This document shows positions 1,811 to 8,549 of a DNA stretch of 36,900 nucleotides, in pieces. The notes beneath the pieces were generated by a model. It was not told the DNA's origin, did not search any database, and saw only the letters and a program-made list of their open reading frames with translations. The first letter of the stretch is position 1. Every line of letters starts with the position of its first letter. The stretch covers positions 1-36,900 of the forward strand of contig NZ_JADEWH010000027.1 in assembly GCF_015207755.1 (NCBI RefSeq), in the 5' to 3' direction. Source of the stretch: Nodularia sp. LEGE 06071. Lineage in GTDB: Bacteria > Cyanobacteriota > Cyanobacteriia > Cyanobacteriales > Nostocaceae. Made by a program: the position numbers and the translations under genes.

Positions 1811-2362
1811 ATGCCTCGTTCCTTACTCCAAGCCGTCTTGTTAGTAGACGGCTACAATATAATTGGTGCTTGGCCTTGCCTGAAAAAAACCCGTGATCAT
1901 GCAGGATTAGAGGCCGCACGCTGGGAATTGGTGGAAGCAATGACTAGCTACAGTTCTTTTCAAGGTTATGAGACTGAGATAGTTTTTGATGCCCAATATC
2001 ATCAAGCTTCTAGCAATAAAGAAATTATTACAGAACTCTTATCAGTTCATTACACTGATTTTGGGCAAACGGCAGACACCTATATTGAAAAATCCTGTGC
2101 ATCTCTGCGCTATGAAAGGGCGCAATCTCTGATTCATCGCGTGATTGTTGCCACCTCAGACCGCGCGCAGCAGTTGATGGTACAGGGGTATGGTGCTGAA
2201 TGGTTGTCGGCACAGCAACTATGTGGTGAGGTAGAAAGTACAATTTGTCGGATGCGACATAAATATCAAAAGCGCAAACAATCCAAAAGTAGGTTCTTAG
2301 TCAACTCTATTGATGCTAAAGCCCGGCAGCGACTGGCGGAATTACGGATGGGATTACAGTAA
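1811..2362 (+). CDS. NYN-domain (YacP/Rae1-like) putative ribonuclease
   Basis: A 183-residue soluble protein. LLVDGYNII near residue 10, then IVFDAQ (about 57-62), TADTYIEK (about 90) and VATSDRAQQ (about 116) are the conserved acidic motifs of the NYN/PIN-like fold of the YacP family, which includes the ribosome-associated mRNA endonuclease Rae1 of Bacillus. The basic C-terminal tail (KYQKRKQSKSR onward) could bind RNA. An RNA endonuclease role is inferred from the fold; the cyanobacterial target is unknown. It is a single gene between a terminator upstream and tRNA-Asn downstream. The start gives the expected short lead-in before VDGYN. Confidence 0.88.
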   Translation: MPRSLLQAVLLVDGYNIIGAWPCLKKTRDHAGLEAARWELVEAMTSYSSFQGYETEIVFDAQYHQASSNKEIITELLSVHYTDFGQTADTYIEKSCASLRYERAQSLIHRVIVATSDRAQQLMVQGYGAEWLSAQQLCGEVESTICRMRHKYQKRKQSKSRFLVNSIDAKARQRLAELRMGLQ

Positions 2363-2506
2363 AGCCTAAAATTCAAAAGTCTGAAACCAGCCGCCAGAAG
2401 GCGTTTTGGCTATAATGTTATGGGAATTAAACTTCGGTTTAAAAAAAGTTTAAAAAAAGACTTGCCAAATCTTATATTTAGTCTTAAGATGTTTAATTGT
2501 GAGCGT

Positions 2507-2578
<72 letters not shown>

Positions 2579-2696
2579 TTTAATTAAATAATCTCAAGAA
2601 GTCTGAAGCATGGAAGTTAAAATATCCAACTTCTGACTTTTGGCTTTTATGGTATTTTGATGAGCGATCGCCTGTGGGATTCTAAGATTTGACTGG

Positions 2697-2859
2697 CATA
2701 ACATGGGCGGGCATCTTTGCCCTCCCCCACAAGAGTTTCATCTAATTTAAATCTTCAAGCTAGATCACTAAAAGCCAGATTACAGAAGCATAATTGCGTA
2801 TAACGCTATCCTTTTAAGCGATCGCACATAAATTCCTAAAATTAGCGTATAGCTTTTAT
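2697..2859 (+). promoter_or_regulatory. Promoter region P1, duplicate of P2
   Basis: From GCATAACATGGG at 2697 this segment closely matches 4185-4388. Shared blocks include the CATCTAATTTAAATCT type, CAGAAGCAT, TTGCGTATAA, CTTTTAAGCGATCGCAC and the run before the ATG. A candidate -10 is TATAAC (2799-2804), where P2 has the consensus TATAAT. P2 carries roughly 40 more bases in the middle. It drives the truncated membrane gene at 2897. Between the tRNA (2578) and P1 I see nothing coding. Confidence 0.6.
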
Positions 2860-2896
2860 ATGACCTTATCTGTGAGAAGTTGAGGAGAAAGTAGCC
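2860..2896 (+). pseudogene. Deletion scar of the ATPase gene B copy (leaves a 7-codon micro-ORF)
   Basis: The ATG at 2860 occupies the position of the gene B start at 4389 (both read ATGAC after AGCTTTTA[T/C]). The sequence then jumps to a match with the last codons of gene B at 5442-5473: TTATCTGTGA...GTTGAGGAGAAAGTAGCC here against TTATCCGTGA...GTTGGGGATAAAGTAGCC there. Gene B has thus been deleted internally, leaving MTLSVRS and a stop at 2881-2883. The stop overlaps TGAGGAG, which serves as ribosome site for the ATG at 2897. Confidence 0.7.
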
Positions 2897-4171
2897 ATGA
2901 GCAACAATTTTCTAAAATCTGGCGATTGGGCTTATGTGGCTAAGTGTGGACGCTTACTTTATTGGACTTACTTCAAGCCTTTTACCTTGGAAAACTGGTT
3001 GAGTCACATCCATCCAGAACTTAAACCGATAGATGATCCTTTTGATAAGCGGGCTGAATTTAGCACAAATTCCCGGTTACGTCGCTATGCTGATCAGGTT
3101 TGGTGGCTGAGTGTCGTAGTCCCAATATTGGCTGTATTATTAGCTGCACCAGTTTACACTCTGGCTAGTGGTGAGTCATTTAACTGGTTCAGAAGTTGTG
3201 CTTTTTTCGCAGGCTGGTTTTTAGGAAGGGTTTTAGGGCGTGTCGGCTATAAAAATATAATCGTTATTGTCGTGATTGTATCCTTAAGCGAATTTTTAGA
3301 CACTCATTTTTCATCAAGGATGCCAGTAGACATTGTGGAAGGTGTGGCGGTGGGCTTGGTTACAGGCTTGGTGGGAGGTGTGGCGCTAGGCGTGGCGATA
3401 GGTTTGGCGGCAGGCGTTTCAGTAGGGGTGGCAGGAGGCATTTTAGTAGGGGTGGCAGGAGGCGTTTCAGTCAGCGTGGCAGGAGGCGTGTTGTCTACAT
3501 TGTTGGTAGGCTTGGTTTCCATCGTGACGGGAGGCTTGGGTTTGGCGGGAGGCTTGGCGGCAGGTTTGGCGTGGATTTTGGGTGTTTTGCGAATGTACTT
3601 CTGGCTACCAGAATTACTGTGGACACTCATTCTCTTTTTCTCTAATAGAAAAAGGGTAGATTGTTTACGATACCTACCACCTCGCTTTGATGAACGAATT
3701 ATTTTGCCTCTGCCTTTTATGGATCGAATGATTGTAGAGGCTTATCAAGAGAACCCAGCAGCAGCCAGTGAGACTATTAATTACTTGATTAGTTATACCA
3801 ATCAGCAAAAAGTTGCGACAAAGGCAATTACTGAGATTGCGATAGATAGCCTCAATCGTTGTCAAAGGTTGAGCGATATTATAGACATTGACAAGCAACT
3901 GGCTTGGATTCCCTCACCACCACCAAAGGAACTTGGCACGGTTTTTTATCAATTTTTAGATATTAGCGAGGATCTCCGTGCATTAGAGGAAGCTAATTCG
4001 CTCTATGTTCAGTATGAATTACTGAATACTTCCATCAGTGCATTACAGGAACTTTCAAACAGTCTTGCTTCTAAGAAAAATACTTTTATAGCGACTAAGT
4101 TTAGTAGTATTGTGCAACGCTGGCTGACAATTTTGGAGAGGGCAAAGCGCACTTTAGAGGAAACAGCTTAA
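2897..4171 (+). CDS. Truncated paralogue of the membrane STAND ATPase C (anchor half only)
   Basis: A 424-residue membrane protein. Residues 1-60 are a conserved cytosolic head, followed by hydrophobic segments at about 70-90 and 98-135, then a long Gly/Val/Ala stretch at about 148-235 (GVAGGV-type repeats), then a soluble helical part to the end. It matches residues 1-364 of the protein at 5474-7654 throughout, but stops at EETA exactly where the longer protein continues into a P-loop ATPase domain. The DNA identity breaks at 4167/4168. It therefore keeps the anchor and linker but has no ATPase. It could be a regulatory or dominant partner of the full-length protein, or a decaying duplicate; the intact 424-codon frame favours expression. 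The function is unknown. Confidence 0.75.
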   Translation: MSNNFLKSGDWAYVAKCGRLLYWTYFKPFTLENWLSHIHPELKPIDDPFDKRAEFSTNSRLRRYADQVWWLSVVVPILAVLLAAPVYTLASGESFNWFRSCAFFAGWFLGRVLGRVGYKNIIVIVVIVSLSEFLDTHFSSRMPVDIVEGVAVGLVTGLVGGVALGVAIGLAAGVSVGVAGGILVGVAGGVSVSVAGGVLSTLLVGLVSIVTGGLGLAGGLAAGLAWILGVLRMYFWLPELLWTLILFFSNRKRVDCLRYLPPRFDERIILPLPFMDRMIVEAYQENPAAASETINYLISYTNQQKVATKAITEIAIDSLNRCQRLSDIIDIDKQLAWIPSPPPKELGTVFYQFLDISEDLRALEEANSLYVQYELLNTSISALQELSNSLASKKNTFIATKFSSIVQRWLTILERAKRTLEETA

Positions 4172-4184
4172 CCGTATTAAACTT

Positions 4185-4388
4185 GCATAACATGGGGGGA
4201 ACCAGATGCCCACCCCACAAGACTTTTATCTAATTTAAATCTGCAAACTAGATATTTTTCAGATGATCTGGGAGATTTTGCACTTTCGGCACAACACTAA
4301 ACACCAGATAACAGAAGCATGATTGCGTATAATGCTATGCTTTTAAGCGATCGCACTTAAATTATTAAAATTAGGGTATAGCTTTTAC
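4185..4388 (+). promoter_or_regulatory. Promoter region P2 of the ATPase pair
   Basis: Paralogous to P1 (2697-2859). It contains TATAAT at 4328-4333 as a likely -10, a HIP1 site in the leader, and a second weaker TATAGC just before the ATG. No good -35 is visible, which would suit an activator-dependent promoter. It begins within 18 bases of the breakpoint that ends the upstream gene. Confidence 0.55.
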
Positions 4389-5471
4389 ATGACTTCTGGG
4401 GCATTACCTGCGAATCCTTTTGTAGCTGCGGGGATGATTGAAGACCCCAAGCTGTTTGTCGGTCGTAAAGATGAGTTACACGCGATCGCATCTCGAATGA
4501 GTGGTGTCCAGCCGACAAGTATTAATATTGTCGGTGACAAGCGAATTGGTAAATCGTCGTTGCTGTATCACTACTTTTTGACTTGGGAACAGCGAGTACC
4601 AAACCCCAGCCGTTATGTCGTCATTTACCTCTCCCTTCAAAATGTGTCGTGTCAGCGAGAGGAAAATTTTTATTTAGCAGTGGCGCGGGAATTGTTGAAT
4701 TTTCCCAATGTGGCGACAAATCCAGCTTTAAGTGACCCTTTGAGAGTTACACTCCTTGACCGTGCAGCTTTTTCAGATGCGATCAGAGAATGGAAAAAGC
4801 AAGGAATATTACCAGTTCTTTGCTTAGATGATTTTAAGAGGGTGCTTGATAACAAGAACGAATTTAATGATGATTTTTATAATAATCTGCGCTCTTTGAT
4901 GGATAGCAGTAGTTTGATGCTGATCATGGCTTCACAGTACAAACTCGATTTTTACAGCAAAAAGCATCAGTTGACTTCTGATTTTTTCAATTTGGGTCAT
5001 GTAATCAAGTTGCGTGGACTTAAAGAAGAAGAGGTCAAAGATTTGTTACGTCTACCTGCTAGCACTGTTAATGGTGCTGCATCAGCTTTGAGTATGGATG
5101 AACAGCGCCTGAGTCAGCAACTGGCTGGAAGTCATCCTTTTTTACTGCAAATAGCAGGGAGTTTAGTATGTGAGGCGCGTCAGCATGGATATGATGAAAA
5201 TTGGGTGAAAACTCGCTTTGCTGATGAATTTCGCCGTTTACCAAAATCTAAACTAGGTTCTCGCCGATGGTTGCATCAGGTGCGCTGGTTAGTTTGGGAT
5301 TTGCCGATGCGCTTGGGTATCTTACCCAAATTGATTGGTGGAACTGTTGACGATATCAGCAGCTGGATTATGGGGTTAGTTATCCTGCTGATGTTCTTTT
5401 TGGTTTTGGTGCGTGTGTTGGACTGGAATGAAGTTTGGGATTTTATCCGTGACCAGTTGGGGATAAAGTAG
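4389..5471 (+). CDS. STAND/AAA-type P-loop ATPase with C-terminal membrane anchor (gene B)
   Basis: 360 residues. NPF at 9-11 and LFVGRKDEL at 22-30 form the usual lead-in of AAA/STAND ATPases (AAA_16/nSTAND-like). Walker A is GDKRIGKSS (49-57), Walker B is VLCLDDF (143-149), a sensor-1-like strand is LMLIMAS (176-182), and GSHPFLLQ (247-254) fits the GxP motif of STAND NTPases. A membrane helix lies at about 325-343, followed by a short charged tail. The stop is two bases before the ATG of the second ATPase, so the two are surely co-translated and likely act together. No effector domain or sensor repeats are visible in this protein. Signal-transducing NTPase at the membrane is inference. Confidence 0.78.
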   Translation: MTSGALPANPFVAAGMIEDPKLFVGRKDELHAIASRMSGVQPTSINIVGDKRIGKSSLLYHYFLTWEQRVPNPSRYVVIYLSLQNVSCQREENFYLAVARELLNFPNVATNPALSDPLRVTLLDRAAFSDAIREWKKQGILPVLCLDDFKRVLDNKNEFNDDFYNNLRSLMDSSSLMLIMASQYKLDFYSKKHQLTSDFFNLGHVIKLRGLKEEEVKDLLRLPASTVNGAASALSMDEQRLSQQLAGSHPFLLQIAGSLVCEARQHGYDENWVKTRFADEFRRLPKSKLGSRRWLHQVRWLVWDLPMRLGILPKLIGGTVDDISSWIMGLVILLMFFLVLVRVLDWNEVWDFIRDQLGIK

Positions 5472-5473
5472 CC

Positions 5474-7654
5474 ATGAGCAACAATTCTGCAAAATCAGGC
5501 TTTTGGGCTTATGTGGCTGAATGTGGACGCTTACTTAATTGGATTTACTTCAAGCCTTTTACCTTTGAAAATTGGTTGCGTGACATCCATCCAGGACTTA
5601 AACCGAGAGATAACCCTTTTGATAAGCGGGCTGAGTTTGGCACAAATCCCCGGTTGTGTCGCTATGCTGGGCAGGTTTGGTGGCTTACTGCCGTAGTCCC
5701 AATATTGGCTGTATTATTAGTTGCACCAGTTTATACTCTGACTAGTGGTAAGTCATTTTACTGGTTCCTAAGTTTTCCTTTTTTGGCAGGGTGGTTGTTA
5801 GGAAGGGTTTTAGACCTTGGAGGCAATAAGAATAGAGTTGTTATTGCCATAATTGCATTCTTGAGCATAATTTTAGCAACTCAATTTTTATCAGGCGTGG
5901 CGTTCGGCGTGGCGTTCGGCGTGGCGTTCGGCGTGGCGTTCGGCGTGGCGGGGGGCGTGGCGTGGATTTTGGGTGTATTGCGAGTTTACTTCTGGCTACC
6001 AGAATTACTGTGGATACTCATGCTCTTTTTGACTTCTGCCAATGGAAAACGGGTAAATTGTTTACCATATCTACCACCTCGCTTTGATGAACTGATTATT
6101 TTGCCTCTGCCTTTTATGGAACGGATGATTGTAGAGGCTTATCAAGAGAACCCAGCAGCAGCCCGTGAGACTATTAATTACTTGATTAGTTCTACCAATC
6201 AGCAAAAAGTTGCTGCAAGAGCAATTACTGGAATTGCTCTAGATAGCCTCAATCGTTGTCAAAGGTTGAGCGATATTGTAGACATTCCCCAGCAACTGGC
6301 TTGGATTTCCTCACCACCACCAAAAGAACTTGGCACGGTTTTTCCTCAATTTTTAGATATTAGCCAGGATGTCAAAGCATCACAGGAAGCTACTTCGCCC
6401 TATCGTCAGTATGAGTTACTCAATACTCCCATAAGTGCATTACAAGAAATCTCCCAAAGTCTTGCTTTTGGTAAAAATACTTTCACAGCTACTCAGTTTG
6501 GTAGCATTGTGCAACGCTGGTTGACAATTCTGGAGACGGCACAGCGCACTTTAGAGGAAACAGCAAAACAATCACAAGAAATCCGACAAGTTTATATTGC
6601 TGGTAACTCCCTAGATCCCGCAACAGCCAAGCATCGCTTCAAAGGCAGAATTGATATATTTCGAGAAATCGAAACTTTGGTAGTTTCCGAATCGCCACCA
6701 GTATTGTTACTCTATGGTGGACGCAGAACAGGAAAAACCTCAGCGCTGAAATATCTACCCCACAAAATAGGCGCAAATATTACACCTTTGCTGGTGGACG
6801 TACAGGGAGCAGCATCAGCGACAACATTGAAAGGCTTTGCAGAAAACTTAGCTAGACAAATGAGCGAAGCTGCAAGGCAATTACCCCGAAAATTATCCTT
6901 GCCTAATCCAGATAGCAATAAACTGGCTGAAGATCCATTTCCAGCGCTGCAAACTTGGCTAACAGAAATAGAACGCAAATATTCTGATAAGCGATTTCTT
7001 CTCTGTTTTGATGAATATGAGCGACTGAGTGAGGTGGTGGAAGAAACAAATAGCCGTGCGCCTCTCAATTTTATTCGTAACCTGCTGCAACACAAAAAAA
7101 AATGGATTTTGCTGTTCAGTGGTTCTCACCAGCTATCTGAACTTGATGATTATTGGAGTGATTATTTAATTAATACCCGCGCCTTGCAGATGAGTTTTTT
7201 GCAAGAATCAGAAGCCCGTGAGTTGATTCTACAGCCTGTGGAAGATTTCCCCAACATCTATGAAGCAACTGCTGTAGATGAAATTATCCAACTTACTCGC
7301 TGTCAACCTTATCTCGTCCAGTTGGTATGTTACGAGTTGGTGGAGTTACTCAACCGCGATATTAGGAGAAATCAGCGACAAGCAAATACAGCCAAAGCCA
7401 CTGCACAGGACGTACAAGCAATTATTCCCACGGTGCTTGAGCGAGGTAATCAGTATTTCCGCGAATTATGGACAAGTTTAGAAGATAGTGACCGCAATTT
7501 ACTACGGCGAGTAATTCAAGGCGAAACTCCCACACAGCAAGAGAAAGGAGTTGTGCGAAAACTTGCACGCAAGGAAATTTTGACTCAAGAAGGTAATGCC
7601 TTTCAAGTCCCTTTGGTGCAAAGATTTGTAGAAAACTTGCTAGAAGAAGAGTAA
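5474..7654 (+). CDS. Membrane-anchored STAND/AAA-type ATPase with GVAF repeat segment (gene C)
   Basis: 726 residues. Cytosolic head 1-60; hydrophobic segments at about 68-90, 97-113 and 121-140; a glycine-zipper-like array of four GVAF units plus two variants (142-165); another helix at about 166-188; helical linker 200-375; F-K-G-R lead-in near 389. Walker A is GGRRTGKTS (415-423), Walker B is FLLCFDEYE (508-516), a sensor strand is LLFSGS (546-551), and a CQPYLVQLV motif (610-618) matches the GxP region of STAND NTPases. The end (about 670-726) looks like a winged helix. It starts two bases after gene B. A role as a membrane signalling ATPase, possibly in stress or phage response, is inferred from architecture only. 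Confidence 0.78.
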   Translation: MSNNSAKSGFWAYVAECGRLLNWIYFKPFTFENWLRDIHPGLKPRDNPFDKRAEFGTNPRLCRYAGQVWWLTAVVPILAVLLVAPVYTLTSGKSFYWFLSFPFLAGWLLGRVLDLGGNKNRVVIAIIAFLSIILATQFLSGVAFGVAFGVAFGVAFGVAGGVAWILGVLRVYFWLPELLWILMLFLTSANGKRVNCLPYLPPRFDELIILPLPFMERMIVEAYQENPAAARETINYLISSTNQQKVAARAITGIALDSLNRCQRLSDIVDIPQQLAWISSPPPKELGTVFPQFLDISQDVKASQEATSPYRQYELLNTPISALQEISQSLAFGKNTFTATQFGSIVQRWLTILETAQRTLEETAKQSQEIRQVYIAGNSLDPATAKHRFKGRIDIFREIETLVVSESPPVLLLYGGRRTGKTSALKYLPHKIGANITPLLVDVQGAASATTLKGFAENLARQMSEAARQLPRKLSLPNPDSNKLAEDPFPALQTWLTEIERKYSDKRFLLCFDEYERLSEVVEETNSRAPLNFIRNLLQHKKKWILLFSGSHQLSELDDYWSDYLINTRALQMSFLQESEARELILQPVEDFPNIYEATAVDEIIQLTRCQPYLVQLVCYELVELLNRDIRRNQRQANTAKATAQDVQAIIPTVLERGNQYFRELWTSLEDSDRNLLRRVIQGETPTQQEKGVVRKLARKEILTQEGNAFQVPLVQRFVENLLEEE
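5894..5965 (+). repeat. 12-bp coding tandem repeat (GVAF array) in gene C
   Basis: Four perfect copies of GGCGTGGCGTTC (5894-5941) followed by two copies changed in the last three bases (5942-5965). Each unit codes Gly-Val-Ala-Phe, the last two GVAG and GVAW. Being in multiples of 12 it can expand or shrink without frameshift. The related region of the upstream paralogue (about 3340-3570) has diverged repeats of the same motif. Confidence 0.95.
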
Positions 7655-7685
7655 TTCTCATCTTCATAGCTTGATTAGTCTGAAT

Positions 7686-8549
7686 TTAAGTATGAAATAT
7701 TACAGTTACTAACGGTAAAAATGCTAAGAGAAAACTATGCCAAAACTGACAGTTGATTTCTGCTGTGGGTTCTGGTGGTGCTAATAAAGCTTCTATTCTC
7801 TGTTCTAAGCGTAGCTTGCCGCCGTAGGCATCGCTTCCACTAGCCCCTAAAGCCGCACAGCAAATTTCTGATGATACACTGCTACTGCTATTACTCACCA
7901 CCATCAGCAATGACTCTGCTAATAGCAAAGGATCTACCTGCGAAGCTGCGTAGCTGTCCGCCCGTAATTCCCGCAATGCTAAGAGTTCTTCCCACAAAGA
8001 ATCTGTATTGGGTAGCCAACTGGTACAAGCACGTACCCAACCCAGCCAGAAAAACCAAAATGTGTCTCGGTAATGGTAATGACCTTGTTCATGGGCTAAA
8101 ACACTATCTACATGGTCAGGAGACAGGGTTTGCAGCAATCCTTGACTAACTACTAATTCTGGATGCCAAAAGCCTATTTGACCCGCAAAGGGCGCGTCTG
8201 TGTTCAGTAATCTAACTTGTCTACCCTGAATATTTACTAGGGGAGATTTACGGGCAGATTCTACAGATTGGCAACCTTGGAAGGCTAGAGTGATGCACAA
8301 AAGGGCAAAAAATCCTAGCAGAATTAATGCTAGTTCATAACTCCACCAGCCAGTGTGTACCCCGCCCATTTTGCCTTGAGGCCCCATGAAGAGAACTGCG
8401 ATCGCCGTCATAAAAATTAATAATGGGGGGAAGAGAAATAAAAATAGCGATCGCCGCCATCGGAGATCCCAGCTACCTTGGAGATGATTCCCAGAGTGTC
8501 TTAAACTCCAAGCAACTGTTAAAGCAGTCAAAATCATCATCAGATGCAT
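7686..8549 (-). CDS. M56 family (BlaR1/MecR1-like) membrane zinc metallopeptidase
   Basis: 287 residues. Membrane segments lie at about 33-54, 70-92 and 160-175 and near the C-terminus (about 269-285). The zinc motif HEQGH is at 153-157 and the third-ligand region ELRAD at 194-198, as in M56 peptidases. It lacks the extracellular beta-lactam sensor domain of BlaR1, like many cyanobacterial members. It follows the BlaI-type repressor at two bases, so it probably cleaves or controls that repressor; the signal is unknown. Residues 236-246 (GSDAYGGKLRL region) are encoded by a dispersed Nostoc-type repeat inserted in frame. The gene converges on the ATPase gene with a 31-base gap. Confidence 0.88.
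   Translation of the reverse strand: MHLMMILTALTVAWSLRHSGNHLQGSWDLRWRRSLFLFLFPPLLIFMTAIAVLFMGPQGKMGGVHTGWWSYELALILLGFFALLCITLAFQGCQSVESARKSPLVNIQGRQVRLLNTDAPFAGQIGFWHPELVVSQGLLQTLSPDHVDSVLAHEQGHYHYRDTFWFFWLGWVRACTSWLPNTDSLWEELLALRELRADSYAASQVDPLLLAESLLMVVSNSSSSVSSEICCAALGASGSDAYGGKLRLEQRIEALLAPPEPTAEINCQFWHSFLLAFLPLVTVIFHT
7809..7838 (-). repeat. Small dispersed repeat inside the M56 peptidase gene
   Basis: GCGTAGCTTGCCGCCGTAGG followed by CATCGCTTCC on the plus strand. This matches the common Nostoc repeat type GCGATGCCTACGGCGG...GCTACGC, recognised from memory. It stays in frame and supplies the peptide SDAYGGKLR to the peptidase. Confidence 0.65.

What the first reader, a model, noticed from the sequence alone, without database searches (positions are those of the whole stretch)
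2697..7654. Tandem duplication of a promoter-ATPase B-ATPase C module, with B deleted from the first copy
P1 (2697-2859) matches P2 (4185-4388), and the gene at 2897 matches the first half of gene C. The junction at 2860-2896 keeps the B start codon and then the last B codons (TTATC[T/C]GTGA...AAAGTAGCC). So the left unit is an older or reduced copy of the right one, with two precise losses: internal B and the ATPase part of C.
Basis: seen in the sequence. Interest (0 to 1): 0.72.

Follow-up and report, generated by a model that had tools for sequence, protein, structure and literature searches.

The report
Partial tandem duplication of ATPase operon
A cyanobacterium has copied part of a two-gene membrane-ATPase operon next to itself and the copy has since lost one gene, which looks like ordinary duplication and decay of an accessory gene system.

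Summary
Block 2687-4167 is a diverged tandem copy of 4176-6567 that lacks B (4394-5441) and stops at codon ~365 of C. The two gene copies are sisters in a tree with 28 orthologs (UFBoot 100), so the duplication belongs to this lineage. Three corrections. (1) Part of the 'promoter' block is a ~102-nt repeat dispersed through the genus. P2's copy begins at 4165, where C homology ends (3-nt overlap). One tandem duplication with that endpoint makes the shortened C directly, so only B needs a later deletion. (2) The left copy is not 'older': the right copy has its own loss, a ~40-aa membrane tract against ~102 aa on the left and 102-143 aa in 22 of 23 measurable orthologs. (3) The genus is very probably Nodularia. 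B-C, a membrane-linked pair of STAND-like ATPases, has genes of this locus beside it in 11 of 21 relatives and is broken or lost in the four other genus members held. The left gene evolves fast with weak constraint (no stop: P=0.02 under neutrality). It is probably a decaying duplicate.

The parts
2687..2765 (+). Left copy of the dispersed ~102-nt repeat (consensus positions 13-89; 3' end lost)
   Evidence: G000:C27:2687-2765, 85% to consensus
2766..2864 (+). P1: upstream region of the lost left B gene, 89% identical to 4295-4393; TATAAC where the right copy and G001 have TATAAT
2860..2896 (+). Deletion scar: B start codon plus one codon fused out of frame to about the last 30 nt of B (7-codon ORF 2860-2883), then the ribosome-binding region of the left gene (read by eye)
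   Evidence: alignment jumps from 4393 to 5442
2897..4171 (+). Left gene X (424 aa): membrane part, ~102-aa GV-rich tract and following part of C; no ATPase domain; stop codon lies inside the adjoining repeat
4165..4167 (+). Duplication junction: 3-nt overlap (AGC) between the end of C homology and the first bases of the dispersed repeat
4165..4262 (+). Right copy of the dispersed repeat (consensus positions 2-98, 87%)
4263..4388 (+). P2: upstream region of B; its last ~64 nt align with B upstream regions of relatives
4389..5471 (+). Gene B (360 aa): STAND/AAA-like ATPase (Walker A GDKRIGKSS, Walker B VLCLDDF) with a C-terminal hydrophobic segment 318-350
4394..5441 (+). Part of B absent from the left copy (1048 nt)
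5474..7654 (+). Gene C (726 aa): membrane part, contracted ~40-aa GV tract, middle part, nSTAND1-type ATPase 386-721 (Walker A GGRRTGKTS, Walker B FLLCFDEYE)
5894..5963 (+). 12-nt repeat array in the tract of C, 5.8 copies at 93% match, so recently homogenised or contracted

Best explanation
An ancestral single unit, repeat-P-B-C, lay between a tRNA gene and the M56/BlaI pair, as in relatives. One tandem duplication of about 2.4 kb ran from the 5' end of the dispersed repeat upstream of P to codon ~365 of C, joined through a 3-nt microhomology. It gave repeat-P-B-C' | repeat-P-B-C, so the left C' never had its ATPase domain. A later 1048-nt deletion removed B from the left copy and put C' 37 nt behind the former start codon of B; 41 nt of the left repeat/upstream region also went. 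Since then the right C has contracted its membrane tract from about 100 to about 40 aa. B-C probably works as a membrane-anchored pair of STAND-like nucleotide switches: B is the smaller ATPase with a C-terminal membrane anchor, C an ATPase carrying a multi-segment GV-rich membrane domain that could act as the output. It may be a stress or conflict system. The left gene is most likely a decaying, ATPase-less membrane fragment. Shown: anatomy, sister relationship, breakpoints, fast evolution of X. Inferred: the order of events and all function.
For: Collinear blocks and breakpoints. X and C sisters, UFBoot 100. Single B-C units in relatives, 11 of 21 loci with flanking genes of this locus (tRNA also seen in L112-L120), and a decayed single unit in G001. 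Flank left of P1 orthologous to all four other genus members. The repeat's first bases coincide with the end of C homology at 4165-4167. dN/dS of X against C is 0.64, versus 0.21-0.26 between either gene and four Nostoc orthologs (NG86; YN00 gives 0.66 versus 0.23-0.34). X lineage 52 nonsynonymous and 20 synonymous changes, count-based omega 0.83. Both ATPases keep Walker motifs and match AAA_35/nSTAND models. Hydrophobic segments.
Against: The X frame is open although about 3.7 stops were expected for 72 neutral changes in 328 codons (P=0.021), which hints at some constraint. The C lineage shows the same recent omega (0.85 on 33 changes), so relaxation is not specific to X. P2's repeat 5' edge looks nearer the repeat consensus than those of P1 and G001 (by eye). 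Of 12 comparable sites where P1 and P2 differ, G001 agrees with P2 at 9 and with P1 at 3 (its printed total of 17 and 3 includes 8 sites beyond the deletion scar, which are not homologous). Conversion or repeat-repeat recombination may therefore have touched the junction. Nothing here tests function.
Confidence: 0.72

Rival explanations
1. One reading: a complete P-B-C unit was duplicated, then two separate deletions removed B and the ATPase part of the left C.
For: Gives the same final arrangement. Two complete tandem units exist in another genome (L110/L111), and broken or partly deleted B or C genes occur in several relatives.
Against: Needs one more event; the second deletion would have to end at the 5' terminus of the dispersed repeat; no trace of C ATPase or of downstream flank remains next to 4168.
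Confidence: 0.2
2. The left gene is functional: the duplicated unit has split its work (duplication, degeneration, complementation), with X supplying a full-length membrane tract and C the ATPase, or X acting as an ATPase-less regulator of C.
For: Reciprocal losses: X has a ~102-aa tract, C only ~40 aa. X frame open (P=0.021 under neutrality). A ribosome-binding region (by eye) and an upstream region are retained.
Against: L097 (same protein as in L052) carries a 39-aa tract with no second copy seen in L052, so a short tract does not need X. X omega ~0.83. A T shared by P2, G001 and 15 of 16 relatives at the TATAAT position is C in P1.
Confidence: 0.2
3. The right unit arrived by horizontal transfer or recombination from another lineage, so left and right are not a tandem duplicate.
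For: B is a mosaic: in residues 81-280 it is 75-85% identical per 40-residue block to B of L040/L043, which lack the flanking genes of this locus, but 35-60% to same-locus genes.
Against: X and C are sisters with UFBoot 100 to the exclusion of 28 orthologs, including L093 and L101, whose C proteins are those of L043 and L040.
Confidence: 0.04
4. Chance similarity, a shared dispersed repeat only, or an assembly artefact.
For: 79-98 nt of the P1/P2 match belongs to a genome-wide repeat.
Against: The 99-nt block outside the repeat (E=6e-33) and ~1.1 kb of coding sequence match at 82-89%; 11-18% divergence rules out a simple assembly duplicate.
Confidence: 0.01

Closest known systems
STAND / AAA-like P-loop NTPases (Pfam AAA_35 PF14516, nSTAND1 PF20703, nSTAND2 PF20702)
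   Same: B scores above Pfam's gathering scores for AAA_35, nSTAND1 and nSTAND2, C for nSTAND1; Walker A and B motifs are kept.
   Different: No WD40/TPR/lectin sensor domain among the Pfam matches; C carries an N-terminal GV-rich membrane domain, B a C-terminal hydrophobic segment.
Predicted NTP-dependent conflict systems of multicellular prokaryotes (PMC7159879 and PMC10907252, passages seen)
   Same: STAND ATPases of filamentous cyanobacteria, patchily present; System 4 of PMC7159879 is also a membrane-associated two-gene system with a glycine-containing patch in its TM segment.
   Different: No MoxR, vWA, VMAP, EAD, caspase or trypsin domain among the Pfam matches of B, C and X; PADLOC gave no confident match. 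System 4 is described as prevalent in actinobacteria.
Ordinary microhomology-mediated tandem duplication followed by degeneration (recalled, general knowledge)
   Same: Two diverged tandem copies, short overlap at the junction, fast evolution of one copy.
   Different: One endpoint sits at the terminus of a dispersed repeat, and both copies have lost something.
Small dispersed or MITE-like repeats of cyanobacteria (recalled; the listings showed no description of this one)
   Same: ~100 nt, in all 5 genus members, short inverted ends (TAAGCT/AGCTTA, by eye).
   Different: No target-site duplication or parent transposon was tested.

Membership tests
STAND-type NTPase (B) | Score above Pfam gathering cut-off | tested here: met
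   AAA_35 32.4 (27), nSTAND1 28.5 (27.1), nSTAND2 27.3 (24) bits; 24 of 28 B proteins match AAA_35 and 15 of 28 nSTAND1 at E<=1e-3
STAND-type NTPase (C) | Score above Pfam gathering cut-off | tested here: met
   nSTAND1 34.5 bits (27.1); 18 of 34 C-like proteins match at E<=1e-3
STAND-type NTPase (X, the left gene) | ATPase domain present | tested here: not met
   No ATPase family at E<=0.1, only a weak HsbA match; X matches only C residues 1-365
STAND-type NTPase (B, C) | Walker A and B motifs conserved | tested here: met
   B: G54 K55 S56 S57 and D147 D148 invariant in 28; C: G420 K421 and D513 E514 invariant in 34
STAND-type NTPase (B) | STAND fold (recalled: P-loop core plus winged helix) | tested here: inconclusive
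   Model of B: mean pLDDT 76.3, pTM 0.64, alternating strand/helix core; fold comparison was switched off
Known anti-phage defence system (PADLOC) | Confident match to a PADLOC-DB model | tested here: not met
   Only weak matches (E>=0.0039) for the three window proteins; 1 of 34 C-like proteins at E=6.6e-4
Ternary MoxR-vWA / EAD conflict systems | MoxR, vWA, VMAP or EAD partner in the operon | tested here: inconclusive
   None among the Pfam matches of the three proteins; neighbours were not scanned, only recognised by similarity or by eye
Tandem duplicate (paralogous pair) | Copies are each other's closest relatives | tested here: met
   UFBoot 100, 28 orthologs
Tandem duplicate (paralogous pair) | Single unit in relatives at the same locus | tested here: met
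   decayed single unit in G001, which could also be a collapsed duplicate
MITE-like repeat | Dispersed copies with defined ends | tested here: met
   End-to-end 1-102 matches at several places in G002 and one or more in G000, G001, G003 and G004; 24-43 matches per genome, many of them partial
MITE-like repeat | Target-site duplication and related transposase | not tested
   -

The most novel reading that the evidence does not exclude
The duplicated operon is being divided between its copies: the left gene keeps the full-length GV-rich membrane tract without an ATPase, while the right gene keeps the ATPase with a contracted tract, so one STAND membrane ATPase now works as a two-chain complex (membrane subunit X plus motor subunit C).
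Probability: 0.13. Interest if true: 0.5.

Novelty: new member of a known kind. Interest (0 to 1): 0.26.

Why it matters
It is a clean example of how accessory STAND-ATPase operons in cyanobacteria are duplicated, trimmed and lost, with a dispersed repeat at the breakpoint. The seven literature searches made here did not turn up a description of the B-C cassette. It is a recurrent pair of membrane-linked ATPases with a length-variable GV tract, and would be a reasonable target for a first functional test.

Tried and rejected
Horizontal origin of the right unit: rejected on the tree, although B is mosaic. Timing against speciation: dS(X,C)=0.19 is about the genus-level dS of flanking genes (0.11-0.29, NG86), and P1/P2/G001 site patterns conflict, so whether the duplication predates the split from G001 is unresolved. 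Stand-alone X-like genes as an ancestral state: the candidates I fetched were contig ends (L124, L130, L131), a C cut off by what reads like an IS (L127, by eye), a C split in two frames (L125), a C with a deletion and split (L129), a lone fragment (L128) or a truncated copy near a full one (L126). Rfam found only the tRNA in 2300-7700. The promoter scan found no site in P1 or P2 and no terminator between X and B, so read-through from X into B is possible. The plasmid search gave one remote match. PDB sequence searches gave nothing convincing. Literature searches listed no description of this cassette, its duplication or this repeat; for PMC7159879, PMC10907252 and PMC3610870 I saw passages and abstract text, and PMC9679502 and the other listed papers only in search listings.
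Full report
OBSERVATION. The window is one whole contig (36,900 nt) of a 5.58-Mb genome. Aligning 2650-4230 to 4131-6640 gives 2687-2710~4176-4199 (83%), 2725-2765~4213-4253 (90%), 2766-2864~4295-4393 (89%), then 2865-3315~5442-5892 (85%), pieces of the 12-nt repeat tract (79-81%), 3567-3643~5958-6034 (91%) and 3644-4175~6041-6572 (88%). The reported duplication is therefore real, and B's interior (4394-5441) is missing on the left. The gene at 2897 encodes 424 aa and has no ATPase family match; C encodes 726 aa with nSTAND1 at 386-721; B encodes 360 aa with AAA_35/nSTAND1/nSTAND2.

WHAT THE 'PROMOTER' BLOCK IS. A DNA search with 2380-4400 in the five genus genomes hit many unrelated places with two short stretches, about 2687-2765 and 4164-4268. 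Aligning a set of these copies (13 fetched loci) gave a ~102-nt consensus that begins AAGCT and ends AGCTTA. Searching with this consensus gave 24-43 matches in each of 5 genomes; many are short and partial, the number scored per genome was capped, and several run end to end; the window holds positions 2-98 at 4165-4262 and positions 13-89 at 2687-2765. So roughly half of P1 and P2 is a dispersed repeat. The other ~99 nt is the upstream region of B; its last ~64 nt align with B upstream regions of relatives.

BREAKPOINTS. C homology on the left ends at about 4167, and repeat homology begins at 4165; the overlap is AGC. The left gene's stop codon TAA (4169-4171) lies in the repeat. A single tandem duplication whose segment began at the repeat's 5' end and ended at codon ~365 of C gives this arrangement directly, with the left C already truncated. 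B was then lost by a 1048-nt deletion that keeps ATGAC(C) and about the last 30 nt of B, out of frame. The flank left of P1 is the ordinary single-copy flank shared with G001-G004.

RELATIVES. The collection scan returned 21 loci. In 11 of 21, genes of this locus (ABC, NYN, M56 or BlaI at high identity) lie beside the unit; in the other 10 they were not seen in the DNA held. None of the 21 shows a second partial copy, but L036, L042 and L050 are cut at contig ends just upstream. Some genomes recur under two handles, so the loci are not all independent. In the genus, G001 has one decayed unit at the locus (a 290-nt insertion at B codon 29, and a deletion joining B codon ~117 to C codon ~480), G002 and G003 keep small C remnants, and G004 has none at the locus. 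The left protein has no match in the 4 other genus members (125 of 217 family genomes match in all, many of them remote paralogs; the row list was cut). G001's contig length (5,462,271) equals that given for Nodularia spumigena CCY9414 in the abstract of PMC3610870, so the genus is very probably Nodularia. Duplication and partial loss recur: two complete tandem units in L110/L111, a fused B-B followed by C in L132, C without its membrane part in L150. A search of 291 genomes of the order found B in 37 (E<=1e-30); of 13 of those places that I fetched, 6 showed no C in the stretch held (L138, L139, L140, L141, L143, L148).

AGE AND SELECTION. In a tree of 28 distinct orthologs (identical proteins, and ORFs lacking any of the three parts, were left out), X and C are sisters with UFBoot 100; branch lengths are 0.256 and 0.091. 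dS(X,C)=0.19; flanking genes of G000 against G001-G004 give 0.11-0.29 (NG86); dN/dS(X,C)=0.64 against 0.21-0.26 with four Nostoc orthologs (YN00: 0.66 against 0.23-0.34). Polarised with ten orthologs, the X lineage has 52 nonsynonymous and 20 synonymous changes and the C lineage 24 and 9, with 23 sites not assigned; count-based omega is 0.83 and 0.85; 72 neutral changes would give 3.7 stops on average and none in 2.1% of 5000 simulations. The left copy thus changes about twice as fast, both copies look recently relaxed in this region, and the open frame is weak evidence for constraint.

RECIPROCAL LOSS. The GV-rich membrane tract, measured from residue 128 to the conserved LR-YFWLPE motif (approximate, within a residue or more where N-termini differ in length), is 102 aa in X, 40 aa in C, and 102-143 aa in 22 of the 23 orthologs where it could be measured; the exception is L097 with 39 aa (28 proteins looked at, 5 not measurable). 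C's array is 5.8 near-identical 12-nt units. So each copy has lost something the other keeps. L097/L052, with a short tract and no second copy seen, argues that this need not be complementation.

B IS MOSAIC. In 40-residue blocks the window's B is 75-92% identical to B of L040/L043 (no flanking genes of this locus seen) through residue 280, but only 35-60% to same-locus genes in residues 81-280. In the last 40 residues it is 70% identical to L040/L043 and 55-75% to 12 of 14 same-locus genes (L082 42%, L049 30%) (locus assignment). Exchange of the middle of B is likely but was not tested further.

FUNCTION. Both ATPases keep Walker motifs across 28 and 34 sequences. Hydrophobic stretches (19-residue Kyte-Doolittle mean of at least 1.5): B 318-350; C 64-95 and 117-189; X 64-95, 112-140 and 142-237. 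The B model has moderate confidence (pLDDT 76, pTM 0.64); no fold comparison was possible. PADLOC and PDB sequence searches gave nothing convincing. A membrane-linked STAND switch in a conflict or stress response is an inference from domain type, patchy presence and frequent loss, in line with general descriptions of such systems (PMC7159879 and PMC10907252, passages seen).

VERDICT. The finding is a correct observation of an ordinary process: tandem duplication and degeneration of an accessory operon, with a repeat at the breakpoint. Interest is low to moderate.

Noticed in passing
window 4389-5471: B is a mosaic: residues ~81-280 match B genes from another genomic context, while its ends match those and same-locus genes about equally.
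   Followed up: partly
L132:5698-7944: A fused tandem B-B protein (749-aa open frame) directly upstream of a C gene.
   Followed up: no
L110:7676-15399 and L111:4178-11901: Two complete, strongly diverged B-C units in tandem; the two contigs give the same hits and the assembly is rated 38% contaminated.
   Followed up: no
L138, L139, L140, L148: B without C a few kb from the NYN gene in genomes of another family, so B's neighbourhood with NYN may be older than its pairing with C.
   Followed up: no
L039, L046, L112, L113: C is split into two overlapping open frames in or near the GV tract in several relatives; real frameshifts, sequencing errors or programmed shifting were not told apart.
   Followed up: no
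L106/L107 (G003): The tRNA flank and the M56 flank of this locus lie about 58 kb apart and in inverted orientation in G003, so a large insertion or rearrangement occurred at the site of the lost unit.
   Followed up: no
L104:2892-3181 (G001): A ~290-nt insertion interrupts B at codon 29 in G001 (very probably Nodularia spumigena); possibly another small mobile element.
   Followed up: no
L127:2700-3110: A C-like gene is cut off by what reads like an insertion-sequence transposase (judged by eye).
   Followed up: no
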